The position numbers and the translations under genes are program-made. The notes beneath the pieces were generated by a model. The model searched no databases, was not told the origin of the DNA, and saw only the letters and a program-made list of their open reading frames with translations. A DNA stretch of 38,030 nt, taken from positions 1 through 38,030 of the IMG/VR virus record IMGVR_UViG_3300042897_000659. One strand, 5' to 3'. Numbering within the stretch: position 1 is the first letter of the stretch; every line of letters begins with the position of its first letter. This document shows, one piece after another, positions 1 through 37,114 of the stretch. The stretch is from a virus.

Positions 1-3000
1 CTACACCTGCGCCTGCCCCTGCGGCGATTACGCCTGCCACAAAAACAGCCAATGAACTCGCTGGGGATCTTGCGCTTTTAAGAGCGCAAAAACCGAGGCC
101 GCTTAAGAAGCTTTTTGGCCCCAACCCAACCGAAAAACAAAAGGCGGCACACAAAGCCGCGATGTCTGATTGGGAGAAGCAGTATCGTAAACTGGCTCAG
201 CTGCAAAAACGCACGCTTGACCAAGAAAACGCTAATCGCACCTCCAAAGTCCGTCCCGCATCCCCCGGAGAACAGGTTCAACCTCCAGCTGCGGCCGGTG
301 CCCCGATGCAAGAAGGCATCGACAACATCAAGTTTGTCAGCGAACCCGTTGCTCAAGCTCGCGGCGGTGGCATGGACGCTAAGGATGCCAAGGCTAAACT
401 CGTTCAGCAGCTGGAGCGGGCCGTAGAAGCTGCGCCTGCTGAAAGCGATCAGCAGTACCGAGACCTGATTTCGACAGGTCAAACGGATCTTGAAGAGCGA
501 TTCAAGACCGTGAACGACAAGAACATGGGCGCCGGGTTTGAGGCCAAGTACCGAAAAGCTCACGAACTCGGGAAGCAGTTGCTCGCCAAGTACGGGCCAA
601 GCGTTCCCAAGGTTACGATCGAGATCCCTGGAGATGGCACTTACACCATTGCTAACACAAAGCAGGCGCTGAATCAGGTTTTAGCAAAAGCCCAGAAGCT
701 CAACACTTCCACGGCAAAAGGACCCGTTCGTGCTCCAGCTGCTGCTAGAAAGCCTGAGCGCGCAAACGAAATGCTGATGCGGATGGCGAAGCAGGCGACC
801 CAGGTGTACGGAAAGAACGCCGCTGCAAAGCTACGGGAGCAGGCTGCTAATACCGACCTTGAACTTACTGATGCACAGCGCAACGACTTGAAGGTTGTTG
901 CGGACATGATTACCCCAGTAGTCGCCGAACCCACCGAAGCCGAACTTCAAGCAGCTGAGGAAGCCCGCCTAGCTCAAGCTGAGCAAGAGATCGACGCTGG
1001 CCCCATTGGCCAAGCCAAGCAGAAGTTGGAGGATGAAGGCTCCGACATGAAAAAGAGCCAGGTTAAAGCCATGGCGCGTAAACTGGAGGCTAGCGGCGTC
1101 ATTGATGACTCTGAGTTGGATGATGAAGGCCGTGACACTGGAGTGGATGAGCTTGTCGGTCAGCTGCTAGAACGCGTTGAGGAGGCCCGGGATACGGCGA
1201 TTCAAGAGCGGGAACAGGAGTTGGCTGATGAGGCGAAGGCTGAAAAGGCGGCTCCCAAAACAGCCGCCCAATCCGCCATAGACGCCATCGACAAGGTCAG
1301 CAAAGGGCTGTCAGAAAATTCGTACTCCGATCCGCTGTTTCTAACCCCGCTGGCAAAGCTAGCACTGCAAATTGCCAAGGGACTAATTCAGGTTGGTGTT
1401 GCGGTTGATAAAGCAATTCGCCAAGCCATCGCGCAGGCTAGACAGCAGTTTCCGAATGATCCTACTGACGACATCCAGTTGGCCGATCGACTGATTCGAG
1501 ATGCGGAGTATACCGCAGCTGTTGCAGCCGGTGACATGGAGACAGCCCAGCGGATGGTGGATGCTGCTGCGAAGGCGGCGGGGTACAATGTTGGTCCGGT
1601 GTATCATGGCGTTCGTGAGCGTTATCGCATGGGGACCGAATCATCTCCACCGGCAATATTGCCAGCTACTAAGTTCACTAAATGGATTGCCTCAGAAGCA
1701 AATTTTCCAGCATTTTATGCAAGCATAGATAAGGCAGCAGTTGAAAGATGGGCAAAAAGACCATCAAACGTAATGGCTGTTTATCTCAAAGCTCAAAATA
1801 CAGCAAAAGAAGGCGAGATCATTATCAGTTCATCATTCCTTCAAAAGGAGGTTGTAGATAAACTAAAGTCTTTAGGATATGACTCGGTAGAAGGCGGGCG
1901 TGATTTCAATGCTCACGAAATTGCGGTGTTTGATGCTTCTCAAATCAAATCCGCCGACCCCGTCACTCGCGACGATGAGGGTAACGTCGTTCCGTTAAGC
2001 CAGCGTTTCCAAGCTAGCACGGCTGACATTCGAGGAGCATCCGGTTTAAACCGTGGAATCGGAAAGCGGCTGTCCGATTGGGCTAGGAATGATACCGACG
2101 AAGCTACTCGCCGGGTGCGATTTACGAATCCATCGACTGGAGAACAAGCGACCTTTGGAGATGTTATCTCCGATCTGCAATCAATCTCGGATGAGGCTGC
2201 TCCAGAATACGTTCGATGGCTGCAAAGCATTCCGAACAAATCTACTGCGACTGCTGACATTGTCTCCGATATTACCTTTATTTCCCGATTGGATGCTGAG
2301 GCTGAGCGCAATCAACGCCCCGACTCCGTCGAAGCCATCCTTCAAAAGGTAATCGCCGCTACCGATCCCAAGGGCAAGGTATTCGAGGCCATAACCGGGT
2401 TGTCGAACTTCGTGATTTATCAAGCCTCGAAGATCGCACTCCGGATCTACCAGGCTACCAAGTCCTGGGTGGCCGCCCGTAATGCTGGCATGGACTACAT
2501 CAAATCCCACGTCCAGCTGAGCAACGAAGCGGAGACTGCCGCTAACTTCGAGGAGTACATCAAGGCTTTCCCGAACCAGGAGATTCCTGCTGGGGCTCCT
2601 GGCCGGCCTCAGCCTCCGTCTCCAACCGAGCGCGTTGAATCACGAGGCATCTTCCGTGGTGATGTAGCCCGAGACACCGATGAAAACTGGCAGTCCGAAG
2701 CCCGCAAGTGGGTAGACTTTTACAAGGGGAACCTGGAGCGGGCGTTTCAGGGTTTCATGGGCGCCGACATCGACAAGGCTCTGCGTGAATACGTTGGCGG
2801 CGAACTGCTTCAGCGATCTGAGCTGGAGATCGCACGCGCAAAGAATCCTATCGACTTGCTGCGCGCACTCTACCTGCAAGCACGCATTGCAACTGCGTTG
2901 GTTCAAGCAGGCTCTGACTTCGGTAAACAGGGCCGCGCTCGCCAGCTGACGTTCGCTCGCTACGCGTGGATGGTTCCGCAGCTGGTATATCGCCGACTGG

Positions 3001-5486
3001 TGAACGAACAGCAGAAGCGCAAGATACCGTTCCCCGAGATCGTTGCCCAGCAGGTGCGCGATTGGCTCGTTCAGTCTGGTCAGCAGGCGATCGACCAAGT
3101 CAAAGAAGCTATGAAGCAGGCGGACAACGTGTTTGCCCGCGAGTTTAAGAAAATCAAGCAGGTCCCCGGTCAACCTAAAGGCCCCCCCATCGAGATCAAG
3201 TGGCAGGATATTCTAACTAAGTCCCTGCAAACCCAGGGTTCCGTGCGTCAGAAGATGCTTCAGGTTATTTTGGCCGATCCTCGGCTGAAGAACCTCAGTC
3301 CTGCTGGCATCGCTGAGATCACGAATCTCTTGACCAATGCTTGGGAAAAGAAGCGCGATCAGATTTTCAGATCCGAGTTTGCTAAGAAAGTTCCGCTGCC
3401 GACGGTCAAGCCGGATGCTCGCGAGAAACTCTTTCGCTCTCTGCCTCGCATCCTAAAGTACGCCAACATCGCCAGGGCTACAGCCGGCGATCAAATTACG
3501 ACTGATGGCCCCGACACATTCCTTCTGTGGGATCAGGCTTTCCGAGATGCAGTGGCGCCAGAGTTTGGTGTAGCCGAGATCAACGGCCTTACCGCTCGCA
3601 AGCTCACCGAGCTAGCACAGCGGGCACAAGCCGCTCAGGGTGTTAATCGAAACCAGATTATCCAAGAGATGTTCCGCCTTATGGCCCGGGACGGCGGCGT
3701 GCGGTTCTCGGATGTCCTAAGGGATTACTGGTACGCGGCGGTTCTGTCGGGAACTCGAACCCAGCTGGACAACGCGCTCAACATCCTCAACGGCGCACTG
3801 AACACGGTTATGCTTGCGGGCATGGCCGGTAAAGAAGCCGGGCTGGTTACCAAGTCTGCACTCAAAGGGCTCAACGAAGGTCTCCGAGACTTTTGGCCAA
3901 TGCTCTGGCGCGGCGAGCTTTACCGCTCAGTGAACTTCAATCCAGACCAACCCGGCAACGCACTCGAAGGTCTCGGAGAATCTCGCAACCTGTTTGCCAA
4001 GGGAATCAGTCAAGCCAAGTACGTGAGCCGGCTGATGTTGGCGCTAGATCACGTGACCGCCATGATGTCTGACGGAGCCGCGAAGGCTTACGCGCTCAAC
4101 AAGGAAGTCGGATCCGAAGAAGCACGCAACCTGATGCTTCCAGAGGCGGACATAGTGAAGGCCGCCCGCGATCGCGCCATCGCTGAAGGCACCCGCCCTG
4201 ACCTAGTCAACAAGCGCACCCGTGAGATTCTCCAGGAGAGCTTCCCGGTCGATGTCTTGATGACCTCTAAGGATATCCGCGAGGCCGTGACGTTTACCGA
4301 GGTTCCGCAGGGTGTGATGGGTTCGCTTTACGAAGGACTGAACGCCGCTTCACGTAAGTTCCCGGCACTGAAGTTCCTGACTGGAACCAATTTTGTTCGC
4401 TTTGCCGCCAACTACACCAACGAGCTTCTCAACTACGCGGCTCCGATTGCGGTCTATCGTTGGGTTCAATCCGCACCTGGCAAGTCTGACCAGCCCGGCG
4501 GGCTTCAGTTTACACCGGCCCGACGTGACCTGCTGCTAGCAAAGGCTTCACTAGGTACGGCGTTGGGCGCAACGGCAGCCGCACTGTTCCTCGGTGACGA
4601 TGACAAGGAAGAGGATCGTGACATCGACATCACTGGATCGTTCAAGTCCCTCGATCCAAACAAGCGAAAGCAGCTGCTATCAGAAGGCCGACAGCCCTAT
4701 TCGATCCGCGTTGGCGACACCTACGTTTCCTACCGTCAGCTAGGATTCGGAGGTTTGCTTGGCGCCATCGGTGAACTTCGTGATCGCCAGCTGTTTGAAC
4801 CAGAAAAATGGAATGAGGAGGGCATTATCGCCAAGGTTCAAGATGCAGCCACGGCCGGCCTGTTCATCGTGAAGGACTCATCTGCGATCTCTGGTCTCAC
4901 GGAGTTCTTAGGCTTCGCTAACGCCTACAAGTACGACACCAACGAGGTTATCGAGAAATCAATGCCGCGTTACTTGGCACGGCTTGGTGGGTCGTTCGTT
5001 CCCAACATCCTCAAGGAAGTCGATGCTTGGTCTGACCCGTCGATCTTTAAGGCTGAACCCGGTGGTCTTGGTCACGAATACTTCCTTCAGCAGGTGCCGT
5101 ATGCCCGTCGCGAGATTGGGCCAGGTCCGATCCTGAACGTCCTTGGTGAGCCAGTGCGCGTCGAGCGTTACCCGTACAGCCGCTGGATTACTCAGCGTTC
5201 AGAAGACCCCGCCTGGAATACCCTCGGCCAGCTCGCGAGCAAAGGCGTCTTTATGCCGGTGCCGGCAATCACGGTCAAGGTCAACGAAAACGGCACGCGC
5301 CGAGAACTCACACGCGAAGAGAAATACACCTACCAGCAGGCCGTTGGTCAGGGTTACCGCAAGTTTATCGAGCAGAATAGGGAGCGGCTGCTAGCTCTTC
5401 CGCCTGCCCAGGCATCCGACTTCATCGACAAAAATGCAGATCGCATTCGTCGAAATGCCCGAACAAATCTGAAAAATTCGTTCTGA
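1..5486 (+). CDS. Large phage polyvalent / ejected virion protein, 5'-truncated by the window edge
   Basis: The frame is open from the first in-frame codon at nt 3, so the gene begins upstream and the ATG at 162 is internal; more than 1820 residues are seen. The N-terminal third is Ala/Glu/Lys-rich and helical. Around nt 1600-2010 lies a segment resembling the ADP-ribosyltransferase-like domains of phage polyvalent proteins: it opens with VYHG and closes with IKSADPV, DDEGNVV and PLSQRF. The rest is long helical sequence. The segment DYWYAAVLSGTRTQLDNALN (near nt 3725) and a C-terminal part with PYSIRVGDTYVSYRQ (near nt 4700) are typical of the C-terminal half of such proteins. By family knowledge these are packaged in the head and delivered with the DNA, carrying enzymes that act on the host. 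The ART assignment is by pattern only. The ART-like segment is visibly AT-richer than its flanks. RecT follows after 44 bp. Confidence 0.75.
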   Translation, partial: TPAPAPAAITPATKTANELAGDLALLRAQKPRPLKKLFGPNPTEKQKAAHKAAMSDWEKQYRKLAQLQKRTLDQENANRTSKVRPASPGEQVQPPAAAGAPMQEGIDNIKFVSEPVAQARGGGMDAKDAKAKLVQQLERAVEAAPAESDQQYRDLISTGQTDLEERFKTVNDKNMGAGFEAKYRKAHELGKQLLAKYGPSVPKVTIEIPGDGTYTIANTKQALNQVLAKAQKLNTSTAKGPVRAPAAARKPERANEMLMRMAKQATQVYGKNAAAKLREQAANTDLELTDAQRNDLKVVADMITPVVAEPTEAELQAAEEARLAQAEQEIDAGPIGQAKQKLEDEGSDMKKSQVKAMARKLEASGVIDDSELDDEGRDTGVDELVGQLLERVEEARDTAIQEREQELADEAKAEKAAPKTAAQSAIDAIDKVSKGLSENSYSDPLFLTPLAKLALQIAKGLIQVGVAVDKAIRQAIAQARQQFPNDPTDDIQLADRLIRDAEYTAAVAAGDMETAQRMVDAAAKAAGYNVGPVYHGVRERYRMGTESSPPAILPATKFTKWIASEANFPAFYASIDKAAVERWAKRPSNVMAVYLKAQNTAKEGEIIISSSFLQKEVVDKLKSLGYDSVEGGRDFNAHEIAVFDASQIKSADPVTRDDEGNVVPLSQRFQASTADIRGASGLNRGIGKRLSDWARNDTDEATRRVRFTNPSTGEQATFGDVISDLQSISDEAAPEYVRWLQSIPNKSTATADIVSDITFISRLDAEAERNQRPDSVEAILQKVIAATDPKGKVFEAITGLSNFVIYQASKIALRIYQATKSWVAARNAGMDYIKSHVQLSNEAETAANFEEYIKAFPNQEIPAGAPGRPQPPSPTERVESRGIFRGDVARDTDENWQSEARKWVDFYKGNLERAFQGFMGADIDKALREYVGGELLQRSELEIARAKNPIDLLRALYLQARIATALVQAGSDFGKQGRARQLTFARYAWMVPQLVYRRLVNEQQKRKIPFPEIVAQQVRDWLVQSGQQAIDQVKEAMKQADNVFAREFKKIKQVPGQPKGPPIEIKWQDILTKSLQTQGSVRQKMLQVILADPRLKNLSPAGIAEITNLLTNAWEKKRDQIFRSEFAKKVPLPTVKPDAREKLFRSLPRILKYANIARATAGDQITTDGPDTFLLWDQAFRDAVAPEFGVAEINGLTARKLTELAQRAQAAQGVNRNQIIQEMFRLMARDGGVRFSDVLRDYWYAAVLSGTRTQLDNALNILNGALNTVMLAGMAGKEAGLVTKSALKGLNEGLRDFWPMLWRGELYRSVNFNPDQPGNALEGLGESRNLFAKGISQAKYVSRLMLALDHVTAMMSDGAAKAYALNKEVGSEEARNLMLPEADIVKAARDRAIAEGTRPDLVNKRTREILQESFPVDVLMTSKDIREAVTFTEVPQGVMGSLYEGLNAASRKFPALKFLTGTNFVRFAANYTNELLNYAAPIAVYRWVQSAPGKSDQPGGLQFTPARRDLLLAKASLGTALGATAAALFLGDDDKEEDRDIDITGSFKSLDPNKRKQLLSEGRQPYSIRVGDTYVSYRQLGFGGLLGAIGELRDRQLFEPEKWNEEGIIAKVQDAATAGLFIVKDSSAISGLTEFLGFANAYKYDTNEVIEKSMPRYLARLGGSFVPNILKEVDAWSDPSIFKAEPGGLGHEYFLQQVPYARREIGPGPILNVLGEPVRVERYPYSRWITQRSEDPAWNTLGQLASKGVFMPVPAITVKVNENGTRRELTREEKYTYQQAVGQGYRKFIEQNRERLLALPPAQASDFIDKNADRIRRNARTNLKNSF

Positions 5487-10931: not shown

Positions 10932-11332
10932 GATACAACCCTCCCCTGTACTCGGACGGTGCGCTCACCGGCCCACGGCGTTGGCTTCTTCGACTCCTGT
11001 GCGATCTGTTCGACCAAGGCAGGATTCGTTACCTGCTGAATCTGGGGAGCCTTCACTCGTTGCTGCACCGTGGTGTTGCCACCCGGGCTGTTCACGACGA
11101 TGCCCTGCACGCGCACGGTCCGGCGCTTCTCGTTGATCGCCCCCATCTGGTCAACCCGGCGCTGCCGGTCCTCGGGAGTGAGTGTCTTCGTTTTACCTCG
11201 GCCGCGTTTACCCAGCTGAGAGGCAGCAAGCTGGACCTCGGTGGGTTCGATAGGTGTTTCGATAGGTGTTTCGTTTTCCATGTTAGTATACCGCGTTACT
11301 GGCGCGGATCGGTAACTCCTGTTAGGAGGCAC
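10928..11332 (-). CDS. Hypothetical basic protein with internal repeat
   Basis: 134 aa from ATG 11332, which lies inside the end of the lysozyme gene. A second start, ATG 11281 (MENETPIETPIEP), is preceded by TATACT and 3 nt and may be the real one. The protein repeats a short unit: RRTVRVQGIVVNS near the middle and ERTVRVQGRVVS at the C-terminus. It also has a Lys/Arg-rich stretch (KRGRGKTKTLTPEDRQRRVD) that could bind nucleic acid. A 12-bp DNA direct repeat (GATAGGTGTTTC twice, near 11249-11272) encodes the ETPIETPIE segment. Function unknown. Confidence 0.5.
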   Translation of the reverse strand: MPPNRSYRSAPVTRYTNMENETPIETPIEPTEVQLAASQLGKRGRGKTKTLTPEDRQRRVDQMGAINEKRRTVRVQGIVVNSPGGNTTVQQRVKAPQIQQVTNPALVEQIAQESKKPTPWAGERTVRVQGRVVS

Positions 11333-11666
11333 CCATCCGAGCCTGTACCCGCTTCCAATACGTTATCGACCCTCGCCTCCAGCCCGTCGGGCCATGATGC
11401 CAGATCATCGCCAGATCCCGGTCAGTCGGTTTTCTCCCCAGACGACTCGGTGAACCCCAGTGATCGAGGTACGCCCGAGCGACTCGGGTAGCCGTCACCC
11501 GGTTGGTCATCTCGGACCAGCGATAATTCCCCCCGACGACTCGGTTCACGTCCTTCACGACGCAGGAGCGCACCTGCAAAGCGCCGAGTTCCCCGTGCCG
11601 GCCTCGGGCGAGGTCGTTCCCGCCGGATTCCACGGCGATCAGTGCTGCTAGCAATTCGGCTGTCAT
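11322..11666 (-). CDS. Lysozyme / transglycosylase-like endolysin A
   Basis: 114 aa. The catalytic-type start ALIAVESGGNDLARG (Glu in VES), then GELGALQVRSCVVKDVNRVV, MTNRVTATRVARAYLDHW and the C-terminal GRKPTDRDLAMIWHHGPTGW form the compact lysozyme-like/SLT domain used by phages to cut peptidoglycan. By eye it is about half identical to the product at 36298-36693. There is no signal peptide, so release would need a holin or it acts as a virion-bound enzyme. No Shine-Dalgarno precedes ATG 11666; instead a conserved 55-nt hairpin element ends 7 nt upstream. Its place in an early-looking leftward operon, away from the holin/spanin genes, is unusual. Confidence 0.75.
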   Translation of the reverse strand: MTAELLAALIAVESGGNDLARGRHGELGALQVRSCVVKDVNRVVGGNYRWSEMTNRVTATRVARAYLDHWGSPSRLGRKPTDRDLAMIWHHGPTGWRRGSITYWKRVQARMGAS

Positions 11667-11673
11667 AAAATCG

Positions 11674-11728
11674 TGCGCGTTAATCAGTCGCGCCCCTGAG
11701 GTGATACTTGCCTCACCGGGGCTAAATC
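11674..11728 (-). ncRNA. Conserved structured leader element, copy A (candidate cis-regulatory RNA)
   Basis: Read leftward, it begins GATTTAGCCCCGG and ends AACGCGCA, 7 nt before the lysozyme A start. Hairpin 1: GCCCC / GGGGC outer stem, GGTGA / TCACC inner stem, loop GGCAAGTA, 3' bulge TCA. Hairpin 2: GCGCG, 9-nt loop ACTGATTAA, CGCGC. A second copy lies at 36210-36266 before lysozyme B with the same ends and the same pairing. The gap 11667-11840 otherwise holds only a 14-codon frame (11746-11790). Confidence 0.6.
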
Positions 11729-25731: not shown

Positions 25732-25988
25732 TCATTCCAGTTGATATTGTCGCAGTGCAGGTCAACCAGAACAACTCACTGTTCGTGACGACCGGAATCG
25801 ATTACGACAGCGACGGCGCGATTGTCGGTTCTGAGATTACCGCTCAGTACACATTGAACCCCGGTGACGACCTTACTGGTCAGCCGACCGAGGTGGTCTC
25901 GATTGCCAATGCGCTGTGGACTCCGGCGGTTGTTGTTGCGTACAAAGCGGCGAATCCGGTGGTTGAAGCCGCACAGCCTAACGAGTAA
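25728..25988 (+). CDS. Small protein, paralogue 2 of a tandem pair
   Basis: 86 aa; relative of the gene just upstream (YTLNPGDDLTGQPTEVVSIA, NALWTPAVVVAYKAA), with a longer C-terminal tail and a different N-terminal beta half (VDIVAVQVNQNNSLFVTTGI). The pair sits between the tail fibre and the lysis cassette. Function unknown; a fibre-folding or attachment role is a guess from position. Confidence 0.6.
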   Translation: MIIPVDIVAVQVNQNNSLFVTTGIDYDSDGAIVGSEITAQYTLNPGDDLTGQPTEVVSIANALWTPAVVVAYKAANPVVEAAQPNE

Positions 25989-26158
25989 TGGAACCAACGA
26001 ACAGCAGCACCAGCCCTGGACTATCCCTAGCAGCAGCAGCAGGTGCCACCGCTGCATCATTCCTGCCAATCCTAACCGATTGGGTGCGACTGGTGACCGC
26101 TGTGGTTGGTCTCTTGTGCGCCTGTTACGGAGCCTATAGGCTGTTCAAATCCAAATGA
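25988..26158 (+). CDS. Small membrane protein, holin candidate
   Basis: 56 aa; ATG 25988 overlaps the preceding TAA by one base, and it ends in ATGA overlap with the next membrane gene. A Ser/Ala-rich start (EPTNSSTSPGLSLAAAAGAT) is followed by hydrophobic stretches AASFLPILTDWVRLVTAVVG and LLCACYGAYRLFKSK, with a basic end. Together with the next three genes this looks like a lysis cassette: small membrane proteins, then spanin-like proteins. Confidence 0.55.
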   Translation: MEPTNSSTSPGLSLAAAAGATAASFLPILTDWVRLVTAVVGLLCACYGAYRLFKSK

Positions 26159-35602: not shown

Positions 35603-35673
35603 ACTCATGTCCTTGTCCTGTGGCAGCTTGACTTCCGTCGGGGCAATCAAGTTTGAAGAAAAAAAGAAACAAC

Positions 35674-36207
35674 ATGAGCAACACAGCAAATTTCAACATT
35701 CAGAAGGACGAGCAGAAGTTTGAGAAATTGGCTCCTTACTTGGCGTCTGATAAGCACGTGATCGCCGGATGGGGAGTGCTGAACATCGCTCAGTGCGCCC
35801 AGCAGGACGGTGAACGTGAAAACCCACCGTGCTGGACCGTTGGTTACCTGGAGCAGTATTTCGCCGGCTGCATCGGAGATACTGGCAGCCGAGAACTTGA
35901 ACAGGCCTGCAAGGCAATCTGGGACGCCGCAACCAACCCAACACTTAACGTCACGTTGAGGAGCATCAAAACTGCTGATGGCTATCACAACGTGGACTGC
36001 AAAGAGCTTGTTGATTTTGCAATGGCCAACTCCGATTCCGATGCCAAGCGCAACGGGCAGCCTAGGTTCTGTATCTTTGAGGGCAACGAGTCGATCCGAA
36101 TCAAAACCAAGAAGGCGTTGGAAAAGATCCTCCATACCGTCTCTTGTCCGGTTAAGGTCGAGGCCTTCAGGAACTTCAATCACGGTGTGACGATCAAACT
36201 GCTCTGA
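35674..36207 (+). CDS. Hypothetical protein, 177 aa
   Basis: ATG 35674 (MSNTANFN), preceded by a GAAGAAAAA purine tract; a TTG at 35653 would add 7 basic residues. Pattern: KFEKLAPYLASDKHVIAGWG, CWTVGYLEQYFAGCIGDTGS, LNVTLRSIKTADGYHNVDCK, RFCIFEGNESIRIKTKKALE. It looks like a soluble alpha/beta protein with four cysteines. No family recognised. It begins a new transcription unit and ends 3 bp before the structured leader of lysozyme B. Confidence 0.55.
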   Translation: MSNTANFNIQKDEQKFEKLAPYLASDKHVIAGWGVLNIAQCAQQDGERENPPCWTVGYLEQYFAGCIGDTGSRELEQACKAIWDAATNPTLNVTLRSIKTADGYHNVDCKELVDFAMANSDSDAKRNGQPRFCIFEGNESIRIKTKKALEKILHTVSCPVKVEAFRNFNHGVTIKLL

Positions 36208-36209
36208 TG

Positions 36210-36266
36210 GATTTAGCCCCGGGTGGGGCCAATACCACCCCCAGGGGCGCGACTGGCCAACGCGCA
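36210..36266 (+). ncRNA. Conserved structured leader element, copy B (candidate cis-regulatory RNA)
   Basis: Begins GATTTAGCCCCGG and ends AACGCGCA, exactly like the copy at 11728-11674. Hairpin 1: GCCCC / GGGGC outer stem, GGGTGG / CCACCC inner stem, loop GGCCAATA, 3' bulge CCA. Hairpin 2: GCGCG, loop ACTGGCCAA, CGCGC. Relative to copy A, the inner stem differs by an inserted G-C pair and an A-T to G-C swap, so pairing is kept. It starts 3 bp after the previous stop, 88 nt before the lysozyme B start. Confidence 0.6.
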
Positions 36267-36297
36267 AACCACAGCAACACCACAGCAATGCACAGCA

Positions 36298-36693
36298 ATG
36301 AACCTCAACAGCTTAATCTCAGCCCTGATGATCGTAGAAAGCAGCAACAACGACCTGGCCATCGGTGACCAAGGCCGGGCCATTGGCTGCCTCCAGATCC
36401 ACCGCGCGGTTGTCCTGGACGTGAACCGGATCACCGGCAGCCATTACCGGCACCAGGACATGACCAACCGGGTGCAGGCCCGAGCAGTCTGCCAGGCCTA
36501 CCTGACCCACTACGTGACCGAAAAACGAATCGGTAGAAAACCAACCATTGCGGATTTTGCTAAGGTGTGGAATTCTGGCCCTGACGGTTTTAAGAAAACC
36601 TGTTCAGACAAATACTCGGCCAAAGTTCAACTTCAAACCATCAAGCAAAATGACAATCACATTGAAAAACGGAAGGCAGTTCCAAATAGATGA
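36298..36693 (+). CDS. Lysozyme / transglycosylase-like endolysin B, 3' end altered by HNH gene
   Basis: 131 aa from ATG 36298, chosen by alignment with the product at 11666-11322; an earlier frame start at 36223 lies inside the RNA-like leader. ALMIVESSNNDLAIGDQGRA (Glu in VES), IGCLQIHRAVVLDVNRITGS, DMTNRVQARAVCQAYLTHYV and IGRKPTIADFAKVWNSGPDG define the compact lysozyme-like domain. The match to lysozyme A ends at about residue 113 (DKYSAKVQLQ). The last 15-20 residues read into the HNH gene (44-bp overlap), so the natural C-terminus seems to have been replaced. There is no Shine-Dalgarno; a triple ACAGCAA repeat precedes the ATG. Confidence 0.75.
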   Translation: MNLNSLISALMIVESSNNDLAIGDQGRAIGCLQIHRAVVLDVNRITGSHYRHQDMTNRVQARAVCQAYLTHYVTEKRIGRKPTIADFAKVWNSGPDGFKKTCSDKYSAKVQLQTIKQNDNHIEKRKAVPNR

Positions 36694-37114
36694 GCAAGAT
36701 TGGGAAAAGGTTAAGTGTATCAAGTGGAATGTTCACATGATGAAAAAGGGTTACAAATACGTGTACACATTTCAAAAGTTAAATGAAAAGCGCAAAATGG
36801 TGTACCTACATAGAGTTCTTATGAATTGCAATGGGTCTTTATTTGTTGATCACATTAATGGAAATCCACTAGATAACAGTAGGTCAAATTTACGGTTATC
36901 TACAAACAGGCAAAACCAATGGAATCAGAAGCGCATAAGAGGTGCAGTTCCACATAAAGGCGTTACATTTGAAAACGGTAGTTTCAGAAGCAGAATTAGA
37001 ATCAACGGCAAAAAGAAATCACTTGGGCAATTTAAAACAGCGATTGAGGCATCAAATGCATATAACAAAGCGTCTTTAGAATTGCACGGATCCTATTCAC
37101 ACACAGTTAAATGA
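36650..37114 (+). CDS. HNH homing endonuclease with AP2-like domain
   Basis: 154 aa from ATG 36650. The N-terminal DEQDWEKVKCIKWNVHMMKK and KMVYLHRVLM are followed by the HNH core VDHINGNPLDNSRSNLRLST and the basic NRQNQWNQKRIRG. A C-terminal AP2/ERF-like DNA-binding domain (GVTFENGSFRSRIRINGKKK, SLGQFKTAIEASNAYNKASL) completes the classic phage homing endonuclease layout. It cuts alleles lacking it and spreads by repair. Its AT-rich, A-heavy codon use contrasts with the GC-rich flanks, a sign of transfer. It sits at the 3' end of lysozyme B. Confidence 0.85.
   Translation: MTITLKNGRQFQIDEQDWEKVKCIKWNVHMMKKGYKYVYTFQKLNEKRKMVYLHRVLMNCNGSLFVDHINGNPLDNSRSNLRLSTNRQNQWNQKRIRGAVPHKGVTFENGSFRSRIRINGKKKSLGQFKTAIEASNAYNKASLELHGSYSHTVK

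What the first reader, a model, noticed from the sequence alone, without database searches (positions are those of the whole stretch)
36210..36266. Twin structured leader before two diverged lysozyme genes: candidate new cis-regulatory RNA
A 55-57-nt element occurs at 11728-11674 (minus) and 36210-36266 (plus), each upstream of a lysozyme-like gene. Both begin with GATTTAGCCCCGG, carry AGGGGCGCGACTG and end AACGCGCA. Both fold into the same two hairpins: a GCCCC/GGGGC stem with inner GGTGA/TCACC (A) or GGGTGG/CCACCC (B), and GCGCG-9 nt-CGCGC. The inner stem differs by compensatory change and an added pair, while the loop and the linker CGACTG stay. The proteins have diverged to about half identity, so this non-coding element is better kept than expected by descent alone. 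Neither gene has a Shine-Dalgarno. It may be a riboswitch, a protein-binding RNA that times lysis, or a translation initiation element.
Basis: partly seen in the sequence, partly recalled or inferred. Interest (0 to 1): 0.85.

Follow-up and report, generated by a model that had tools for sequence, protein, structure and literature searches.

The report
Widespread phage intergenic RNA pseudoknot
The repeated stretch before two lysozyme genes is one case of a tiny knotted RNA of about 24 letters that sits between genes in unrelated phages and a few plasmids but is nearly absent from bacterial chromosomes sampled here; no database or paper I could search describes it, and its function is still unknown.

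Summary
Its 3' half is an H-type pseudoknot: NCAG-GG-GYGCG-N-CTGN-NNAA-CGCRC-A. Stem 1 covaries freely; stem 2 swaps one pair, C-G for T-A, always on both sides. The 5' half is a second, variable pseudoknot abutting it. The 3' knot precedes dozens of unrelated genes, and sometimes tRNAs, in Mycobacterium, Corynebacterium, Microbacterium, crAss-like, coliphage/Klebsiella and microvirus genomes and two Corynebacterium plasmids. It is absent from 396 actinobacterial genomes and matches no Rfam family. Lysozyme homologues picked by protein alone have it at the operon head in 77 of 80 cases. It starts at least 6 nt after the upstream stop codon in 90 of 91 families and usually 3-4 nt before a tRNA; distance to start codons is unconstrained. 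This argues against a lysis riboswitch or ribosome-binding element. I favour an intercistronic RNA barrier protecting processed ends (about 35-40%); the mechanism is untested. The 'twin' is misleading: at about 26.05 kb the window switches from 100% identity with one phage contig to 100% with another, so copies A and B come from different phages.

The parts
36216..36240 (+). Copy B, 5' pseudoknot (PK1): GCC 36216-36218 pairs with GGC 36227-36229; GGGTGG 36221-36226 pairs with CCACCC 36235-36240
   Evidence: Covariation across relatives: fourth S1 pair C-G, G-C or A-T; S2 GGGTGG/CCACCC or GGATGG/CCATCC. Specific to this phage group.
36241..36266 (+). Copy B, 3' pseudoknot (PK2, the widespread core): C36241-G36256 and CAG 36242-36244/CTG 36253-36255; GCGCG 36247-36251/CGCGC 36261-36265; loops GG 36245-36246 and CCAA 36257-36260; A36266
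   Evidence: Covariation on 104 distinct sequences, 98.6% of cells paired against 87.2% shuffled and at most 47% when slid; found in unrelated phages.
36267..36297 (+). CA-rich leader without Shine-Dalgarno between the knot and the start codon
   Evidence: Sequence.
36298..36693 (+). Lysozyme-like gene B, 131 aa, SLT-like (sub-threshold Pfam match)
35653..36207 (+). Upstream ORF, 184 aa; its TGA ends 8 nt before PK1
11700..11722 (-). Copy A, 5' pseudoknot (PK1): GCC 11722-11720/GGC 11712-11710; GGTGA 11717-11713/TCACC 11704-11700
   Evidence: Sequence and comparison with relatives
11674..11699 (-). Copy A, 3' pseudoknot (PK2): T11699-A11684, CAG 11698-11696/CTG 11687-11685, GCGCG 11693-11689/CGCGC 11679-11675, A11674
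   Evidence: flanking pair T-A here, C-G in copy B
11322..11666 (-). Lysozyme-like gene A, 114 aa, Pfam SLT above its cut-off; start codon 7 nt after PK2

Best explanation
Identity (about 0.97, shown by sequence comparison): a compact RNA pseudoknot family of phages and plasmids. A nearly invariant 24-nt H-type knot (PK2: stem 1 NCAG/CTGN or another paired triplet, loop GG, stem 2 GYGCG/CGCRC, loop ending AA) is transcribed between genes, in some lineages preceded directly by a second, variable knot (PK1). Mechanism (my best bet, 35-40%, inferred and untested): it is an intercistronic RNA barrier. A mechanically strong knot stands just outside the reach of a ribosome that terminates on the upstream gene. 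When the transcript is cut nearby, for example by RNase P at a tRNA or by an endonuclease in the loose A/C-rich leader, the knot sits at the new end and stops exonucleases, so upstream and downstream parts of the message get separate lifetimes. Shown: the fold, the position between genes, the spacing limits, indifference to which gene follows, near-restriction to phage and plasmid sequence in the sample. Inferred: the barrier, the cutting, and which side is protected.
For: Fold: 104 distinct sequences, covariation score 0.336 against 0.114 shuffled and at most 0.073 when slid. The scan that forced both sides of stem-2 pair 2 to change returned only T-A (one search counts 121, none of the other eight combinations). 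In seven Stephanstirmvirinae phages aligned from nucleotide homology, stem 2 is GTGCG/CGCAC, ATGCG/CGCAT or TTGCG/CGCAA, and stem 1 CAG/CTG or GAG/CTC. Position: 90 of 91 upstream families leave at least 6 nt after the stop codon, mode 6; 216 of 226 elements have an upstream stop within 75 nt. Before tRNAs the gap is 3-4 nt: cr50_1, cr1_1, Pumpernickel, L393, and by eye the tRNA-like L399, L200, L209; one exception at 11 nt. The next feature may be a gene, a tRNA or a terminator. Tandem knots recur with different sequences in separate lineages. Unpaired GG and AA are constant while stem 1 is free (partly imposed by the search pattern).
Against: No transcript ends, half-lives or exonuclease data were available. 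Stem-2 pairs 3 and 4 never vary on both sides, which would equally fit recognition by a host protein or RNA. Only 1-3 copies occur per genome, few for a general stabiliser. In some coliphages a terminator hairpin already protects the 3' end. Copy A lies 118 nt after the nearest upstream ORF, so the tight stop-codon spacing is not universal. The knot is linked to the downstream operon in the lysozyme group but to the upstream gene in some mycobacteriophages, so the protected side is unclear. Pattern-based retrieval could not return strongly diverged members.
Confidence: 0.38

Rival explanations
1. The knot is a docking site for a conserved host machine (RNA polymerase, Rho, an RNase or another RNA-binding protein), acting in cis as an antiterminator-like element or in trans as a decoy that favours the phage.
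For: Stem-2 core and loops look sequence-specific, not just paired. Context hardly matters. A 5.8-kb microvirus carries it, so a phage-encoded partner is unlikely. It was absent from 396 actinobacterial genomes, and the one match in 59 Verrucomicrobiota genomes is on a contig that resembles the window's phage. In several coliphages a terminator follows within tens of bases.
Against: The 6-nt edge after stop codons and the 3-4 nt tRNA gap are not predicted by this alone. crAss-like phages are known (my own knowledge) to carry their own RNA polymerase.
Confidence: 0.25
2. The knot acts on terminating or post-termination ribosomes: it sits at the mouth of the mRNA channel when the stop codon is decoded and blocks sliding or reinitiation, so neighbouring genes or tRNAs are insulated.
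For: Gap of 6-8 nt after the stop codon in many independent families, like the spacers of recoding pseudoknots (established knowledge).
Against: Reading frame of up- and downstream genes is random (83/59/73) and not preferentially open between them, so read-through fusion is rejected. Some copies follow tRNAs, and copy A and others are 30-148 nt from any stop.
Confidence: 0.17
3. It is a new self-cleaving ribozyme or the recognition element of a specific endonuclease that cuts beside the knot.
For: Nearly constant A right after stem 2 (161 of 166 distinct sequences); short gap to tRNAs; position between units that must be separated.
Against: About 25 nt is smaller than any natural self-cleaving ribozyme I know of; stem 2 is more conserved than expected for a catalytic core with free helices; no match to ribozyme families.
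Confidence: 0.1
4. It is a leader that times lysis or senses a ligand upstream of lysozyme, or a translation-initiation element.
For: 77 of 80 lysozyme loci chosen by protein alone carry it at the operon head; no Shine-Dalgarno in these leaders.
Against: Most lineages have it before unrelated genes or tRNAs; variable distance to the start codon; ordinary Shine-Dalgarno present in actinophages.
Confidence: 0.05
5. It is a DNA site (operator or recombination boundary) rather than an RNA.
For: Two crossing inverted repeats; different genes on either side of the same site suggest module exchange.
Against: Within one genome stem 1 differs in sequence but stays paired (EastView9101, PSonyx); G-T pairs occur at the flanking position; it lies between genes on the strand of those genes. 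Exchange at the site can be a side effect.
Confidence: 0.05

Closest known systems
Bacteriophage T2/T4 gene 32 leader pseudoknot (PMC3014915)
   Same: Short coaxial H-type pseudoknot in a phage mRNA upstream of a start codon, followed by an unstructured stretch
   Different: Gene-specific operator bound by the gene 32 protein 67 nt upstream of its start; here the knot is widespread, also lies before tRNAs, has a different sequence, and carriers as small as a microvirus share no obvious common protein
SAS/ESAS repeats of cluster K mycobacteriophages (PMC3203893)
   Same: Short conserved intergenic element near starts of many small non-structural phage genes, function unknown
   Different: SAS is GGGATAGGAGCCC next to the start codon; ESAS are 17-bp inverted repeats; no pseudoknot; described for one phage cluster
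HDV-like theta ribozymes next to phage tRNAs (PMC10879173)
   Same: Compact pseudoknotted phage RNA directly abutting tRNA genes
   Different: Theta ribozymes sit with their cleavage site at the tRNA 3' end; this knot sits 3-4 nt before the tRNA 5' end, is smaller and matches no ribozyme model
Type III antitoxin RNAs such as ToxI (PMC5086642)
   Same: Small H-type pseudoknots, sometimes consecutive, linked to phage biology
   Different: ToxI is an array of repeats that guards against a toxic endoribonuclease; here at most two unlike knots and no toxin partner seen
Viral exoribonuclease-resistant RNAs (xrRNA)
   Same: Compact pseudoknots with an invariant core, often in tandem; the proposed way of working
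   Different: Known examples act against eukaryotic Xrn1 and have a ring fold (PMC8571300); no resistance was tested here and no sequence kinship is claimed

Membership tests
Any Rfam 15 family | Covariance-model match over the element | tested here: not met
   No convincing match over the element at gathering score or at lenient E-values; the weak sub-threshold matches overlap mainly terminators and tRNAs
H-type pseudoknot (structural class) | Two crossing helices supported by compensatory change | tested here: met
T4 gene 32-type translational operator | Knot lies in the leader of the gene for its own binding protein | tested here: not met
   At least 66 downstream protein families plus tRNAs
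SAS/ESAS | GGGATAGGAGCCC at the translation start, with 17-bp inverted repeats | tested here: not met
   Sequence compared with PMC3203893
HDV-like/theta ribozyme | HDV-like model match, cleavage site at the tRNA 3' end | tested here: not met
   No HDV-family match; knot is 5' of the tRNA
HDV-like/theta ribozyme | Self-cleavage | not testable with these tools
   Needs an in vitro assay
Type III toxin-antitoxin RNA | Repeat array directly upstream of a ToxN-like endoribonuclease gene | tested here: not met
   No repeat array in the window at the element; downstream genes are lysozymes, HNH proteins and small unknowns
xrRNA-like exonuclease block | Stops a processive exonuclease | not testable with these tools
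   Needs a biochemical assay
Processive antitermination RNA (HK022 put-like) | Makes RNA polymerase read through terminators | not testable with these tools
   Terminators downstream in some coliphages are only suggestive
Shine-Dalgarno substitute / translation initiation element | Fixed short distance to the start codon | tested here: not met
   Median distance 7 to 90 nt across 66 families
Stop-codon read-through pseudoknot | Open in-frame continuation into the next ORF | tested here: not met
   Frames 83/59/73, no preference for an open frame

The most novel reading that the evidence does not exclude
A near-universal phage RNA module: one 24-nt pseudoknot shared by tailed phages of Actinomycetota, Enterobacterales and gut crAss-like viruses, by a single-stranded DNA microvirus and by plasmids, acting on a conserved bacterial machine (ribosome, RNase or RNA polymerase) in a way not known for any phage RNA.
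Probability: 0.35. Interest if true: 0.93.

Novelty: new variant of a known kind. Interest (0 to 1): 0.8.

Why it matters
If right, hundreds of sequenced phages, including well-studied mycobacteriophages and coliphages, carry an unannotated RNA that has kept the same core across very distant viruses and hosts. Something that constant in phages yet almost absent from the bacterial genomes sampled probably meets a host component that hardly changes. Because it occurs in phages of tractable hosts (M. smegmatis, C. glutamicum, E. coli), its function can be tested directly, and its tight rules (6 nt after a stop codon, 3-4 nt before a tRNA) give precise predictions. It is also an example of a structured RNA that nested secondary-structure searches miss because its two helices cross.

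Tried and rejected
Read-through or frameshift pseudoknot: frames are random. Ribosome-binding substitute: spacing varies and a normal Shine-Dalgarno is present in actinophages. DNA operator or recombination site: stem 1 differs within one genome but stays paired, and G-T pairs occur. Lysozyme-specific element: contradicted by gene diversity. Scan for stem-1 first-pair variants: 11 hits, probably chance. Scans forcing change on both sides of stem-2 pairs 3 and 4: none, so those pairs look invariant. Plasmid matches in Rhizobium, Roseomonas, Cupriavidus: partial, taken as chance. Literature by sequence text and by topic: nothing describing it. An upstream C-run that could pair with the GGGG is enriched in AT-rich contigs (55 of 97 distinct contexts against 184 of 1803 post-stop controls); lineages are not independent and I could not show a switch.

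Full report
What was checked. The genes that follow are SLT-like lysozymes, 48% identical. Free-energy folding of the stretch is not remarkable (z -1.2 and -2.4), so the case rests on comparison.

Finding the real core. A composite pattern found 36 IMG/VR contigs. The conserved part is the 3' half, CAGGGGCGCGACTGNNNAACGCGCA, in GC-rich and AT-rich phages and before unrelated genes. The base before CAG covaries with the base after CTG, while GCGCG and CGCGC pair across it: an H-type pseudoknot. Forcing both sides of stem-2 pair 2 to differ from wild type gave at least 120 contigs, all T-A out of nine possible combinations. Stem-1 pair 2 may be A-T, G-C or T-A; GAG/CTC, TAG/CTA and AGG/CCT also occur. 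Forcing change on both sides of stem-2 pairs 3 and 4 gave nothing. On 104 distinct sequences 98.6% of pair cells are standard, against 87.2% shuffled and at most 47% for slid versions. These sequences were retrieved with patterns, so invariance elsewhere is partly imposed. Sets not chosen by the knot pattern are the lysozyme loci and the coliphage group.

Isolated phages. It is unannotated and mostly between genes in over 400 Mycobacterium phage records, Corynebacterium phi673, phi674, BFK20 and PSonyx, Microbacterium Pumpernickel, crAss-like cr50_1 and cr1_1, a microvirus, and Corynebacterium plasmids pCGR1 and pCC2. In Stephanstirmvirinae, 131 records match a longer RNA region, usually 3' of a tRNA array. 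Seven were aligned, and all seven keep the knot through changes in both stems and in loop length; some are followed by an intrinsic terminator. None of 396 actinobacterial genomes has it. One of 59 Verrucomicrobiota genomes does, on a contig similar to the window's phage.

The 5' half. In the freshwater lysozyme phages the 5' stretch forms a second knot: GCC before the hairpin pairs with GGC in its loop. The fourth pair is C-G, G-C or A-T, and the hairpin stem is GGGTGG/CCACCC or GGATGG/CCATCC, or GGTGA/TCACC in copy A. Comparable upstream knots with other sequences appear in the L209/L252 and L216/L222 contigs (58 of 273 contexts in all score at or above 26, against 2.2 expected from shuffles). 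A further hairpin type with a GAGGAAT loop and many compensated stems replaces it in relatives.

Genomic rules. Lysozyme homologues chosen by protein alone carry the 3' knot in 77 of 80 loci: 45 directly upstream and 32 further upstream with sequence between, so it heads the operon. Across all elements the upstream gap is at least 6 nt in 90 of 91 families, mode 6, while the distance to the next start is 7-90 nt. Before tRNAs the gap is 3-4 nt in several unrelated phages, with one case at 11 nt. The frame relation is random. Copy A itself is an exception, 118 nt after the nearest upstream ORF.

The window. Identity to contig G006 is 100% in 100-base bins up to about 26.1 kb and then falls to about 70%; identity to G415 rises to 100% from about 26.05 kb. 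G006 holds only copy A, G415 only copy B. The window is an assembly chimera or a very fresh recombinant.

How it works. Shown: fold, placement, spacing, indifference to neighbours, near-restriction to phage and plasmid sequence in the genomes sampled. Inferred: a barrier between cistrons that survives terminating ribosomes and guards processed RNA ends. Rivals are a docking site for a host machine, a ribosome insulator, and a cleavage element. No experiment here separates them.

Novelty. No Rfam match; no paper in the searchable library prints the core as a phage element. Papers behind subscription and supplementary tables were not searchable, so an earlier description cannot be excluded. I rate it a new family within the known kind of compact phage RNA structures, with a real chance that its way of working is new.

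Noticed in passing
window 25985-26150: Sharp switch from 100% identity with one phage contig (G006) to 100% with another (G415); the window is a chimera or fresh recombinant.
   Followed up: yes
window 36515-37106: Relatives align up to 36514 and resume at 37107; the segment between holds an HNH_3 gene and changes the C-terminus of lysozyme B: a likely homing-endonuclease insertion.
   Followed up: partly
window 162-5486: 1774-aa protein with a near-threshold polyvalent-protein ADP-ribosyltransferase match (ART-PolyVal).
   Followed up: no
L156, L200, L209, L252: Directly after the knot lie tRNA-like sequences (T-arm and CCA present) with odd middle parts that ARAGORN does not call.
   Followed up: no
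L286:1440-1530, L439:1440-1530 and relatives: Coliphage version has a conserved 5' domain (GCCAGCGGTATCTTCGAAGAACATGCCTAGTTCC) that may itself be a pseudoknot with compensatory changes; in several records it follows directly on tRNA-Ile or tRNA-Met.
   Followed up: partly
L289:2501-2602: In Mycobacterium phage Zizzle the mobile element gene MPME2 follows directly after the knot.
   Followed up: no
L267:7398-7461: Strong twister-P5 ribozyme match (E 1e-8) in a viral contig unrelated to the knot.
   Followed up: no
upstream of knots in AT-rich contigs: A C-run able to pair with the GGGG of the knot is enriched (57% against 10% of control contexts), hinting at an alternative fold.
   Followed up: partly
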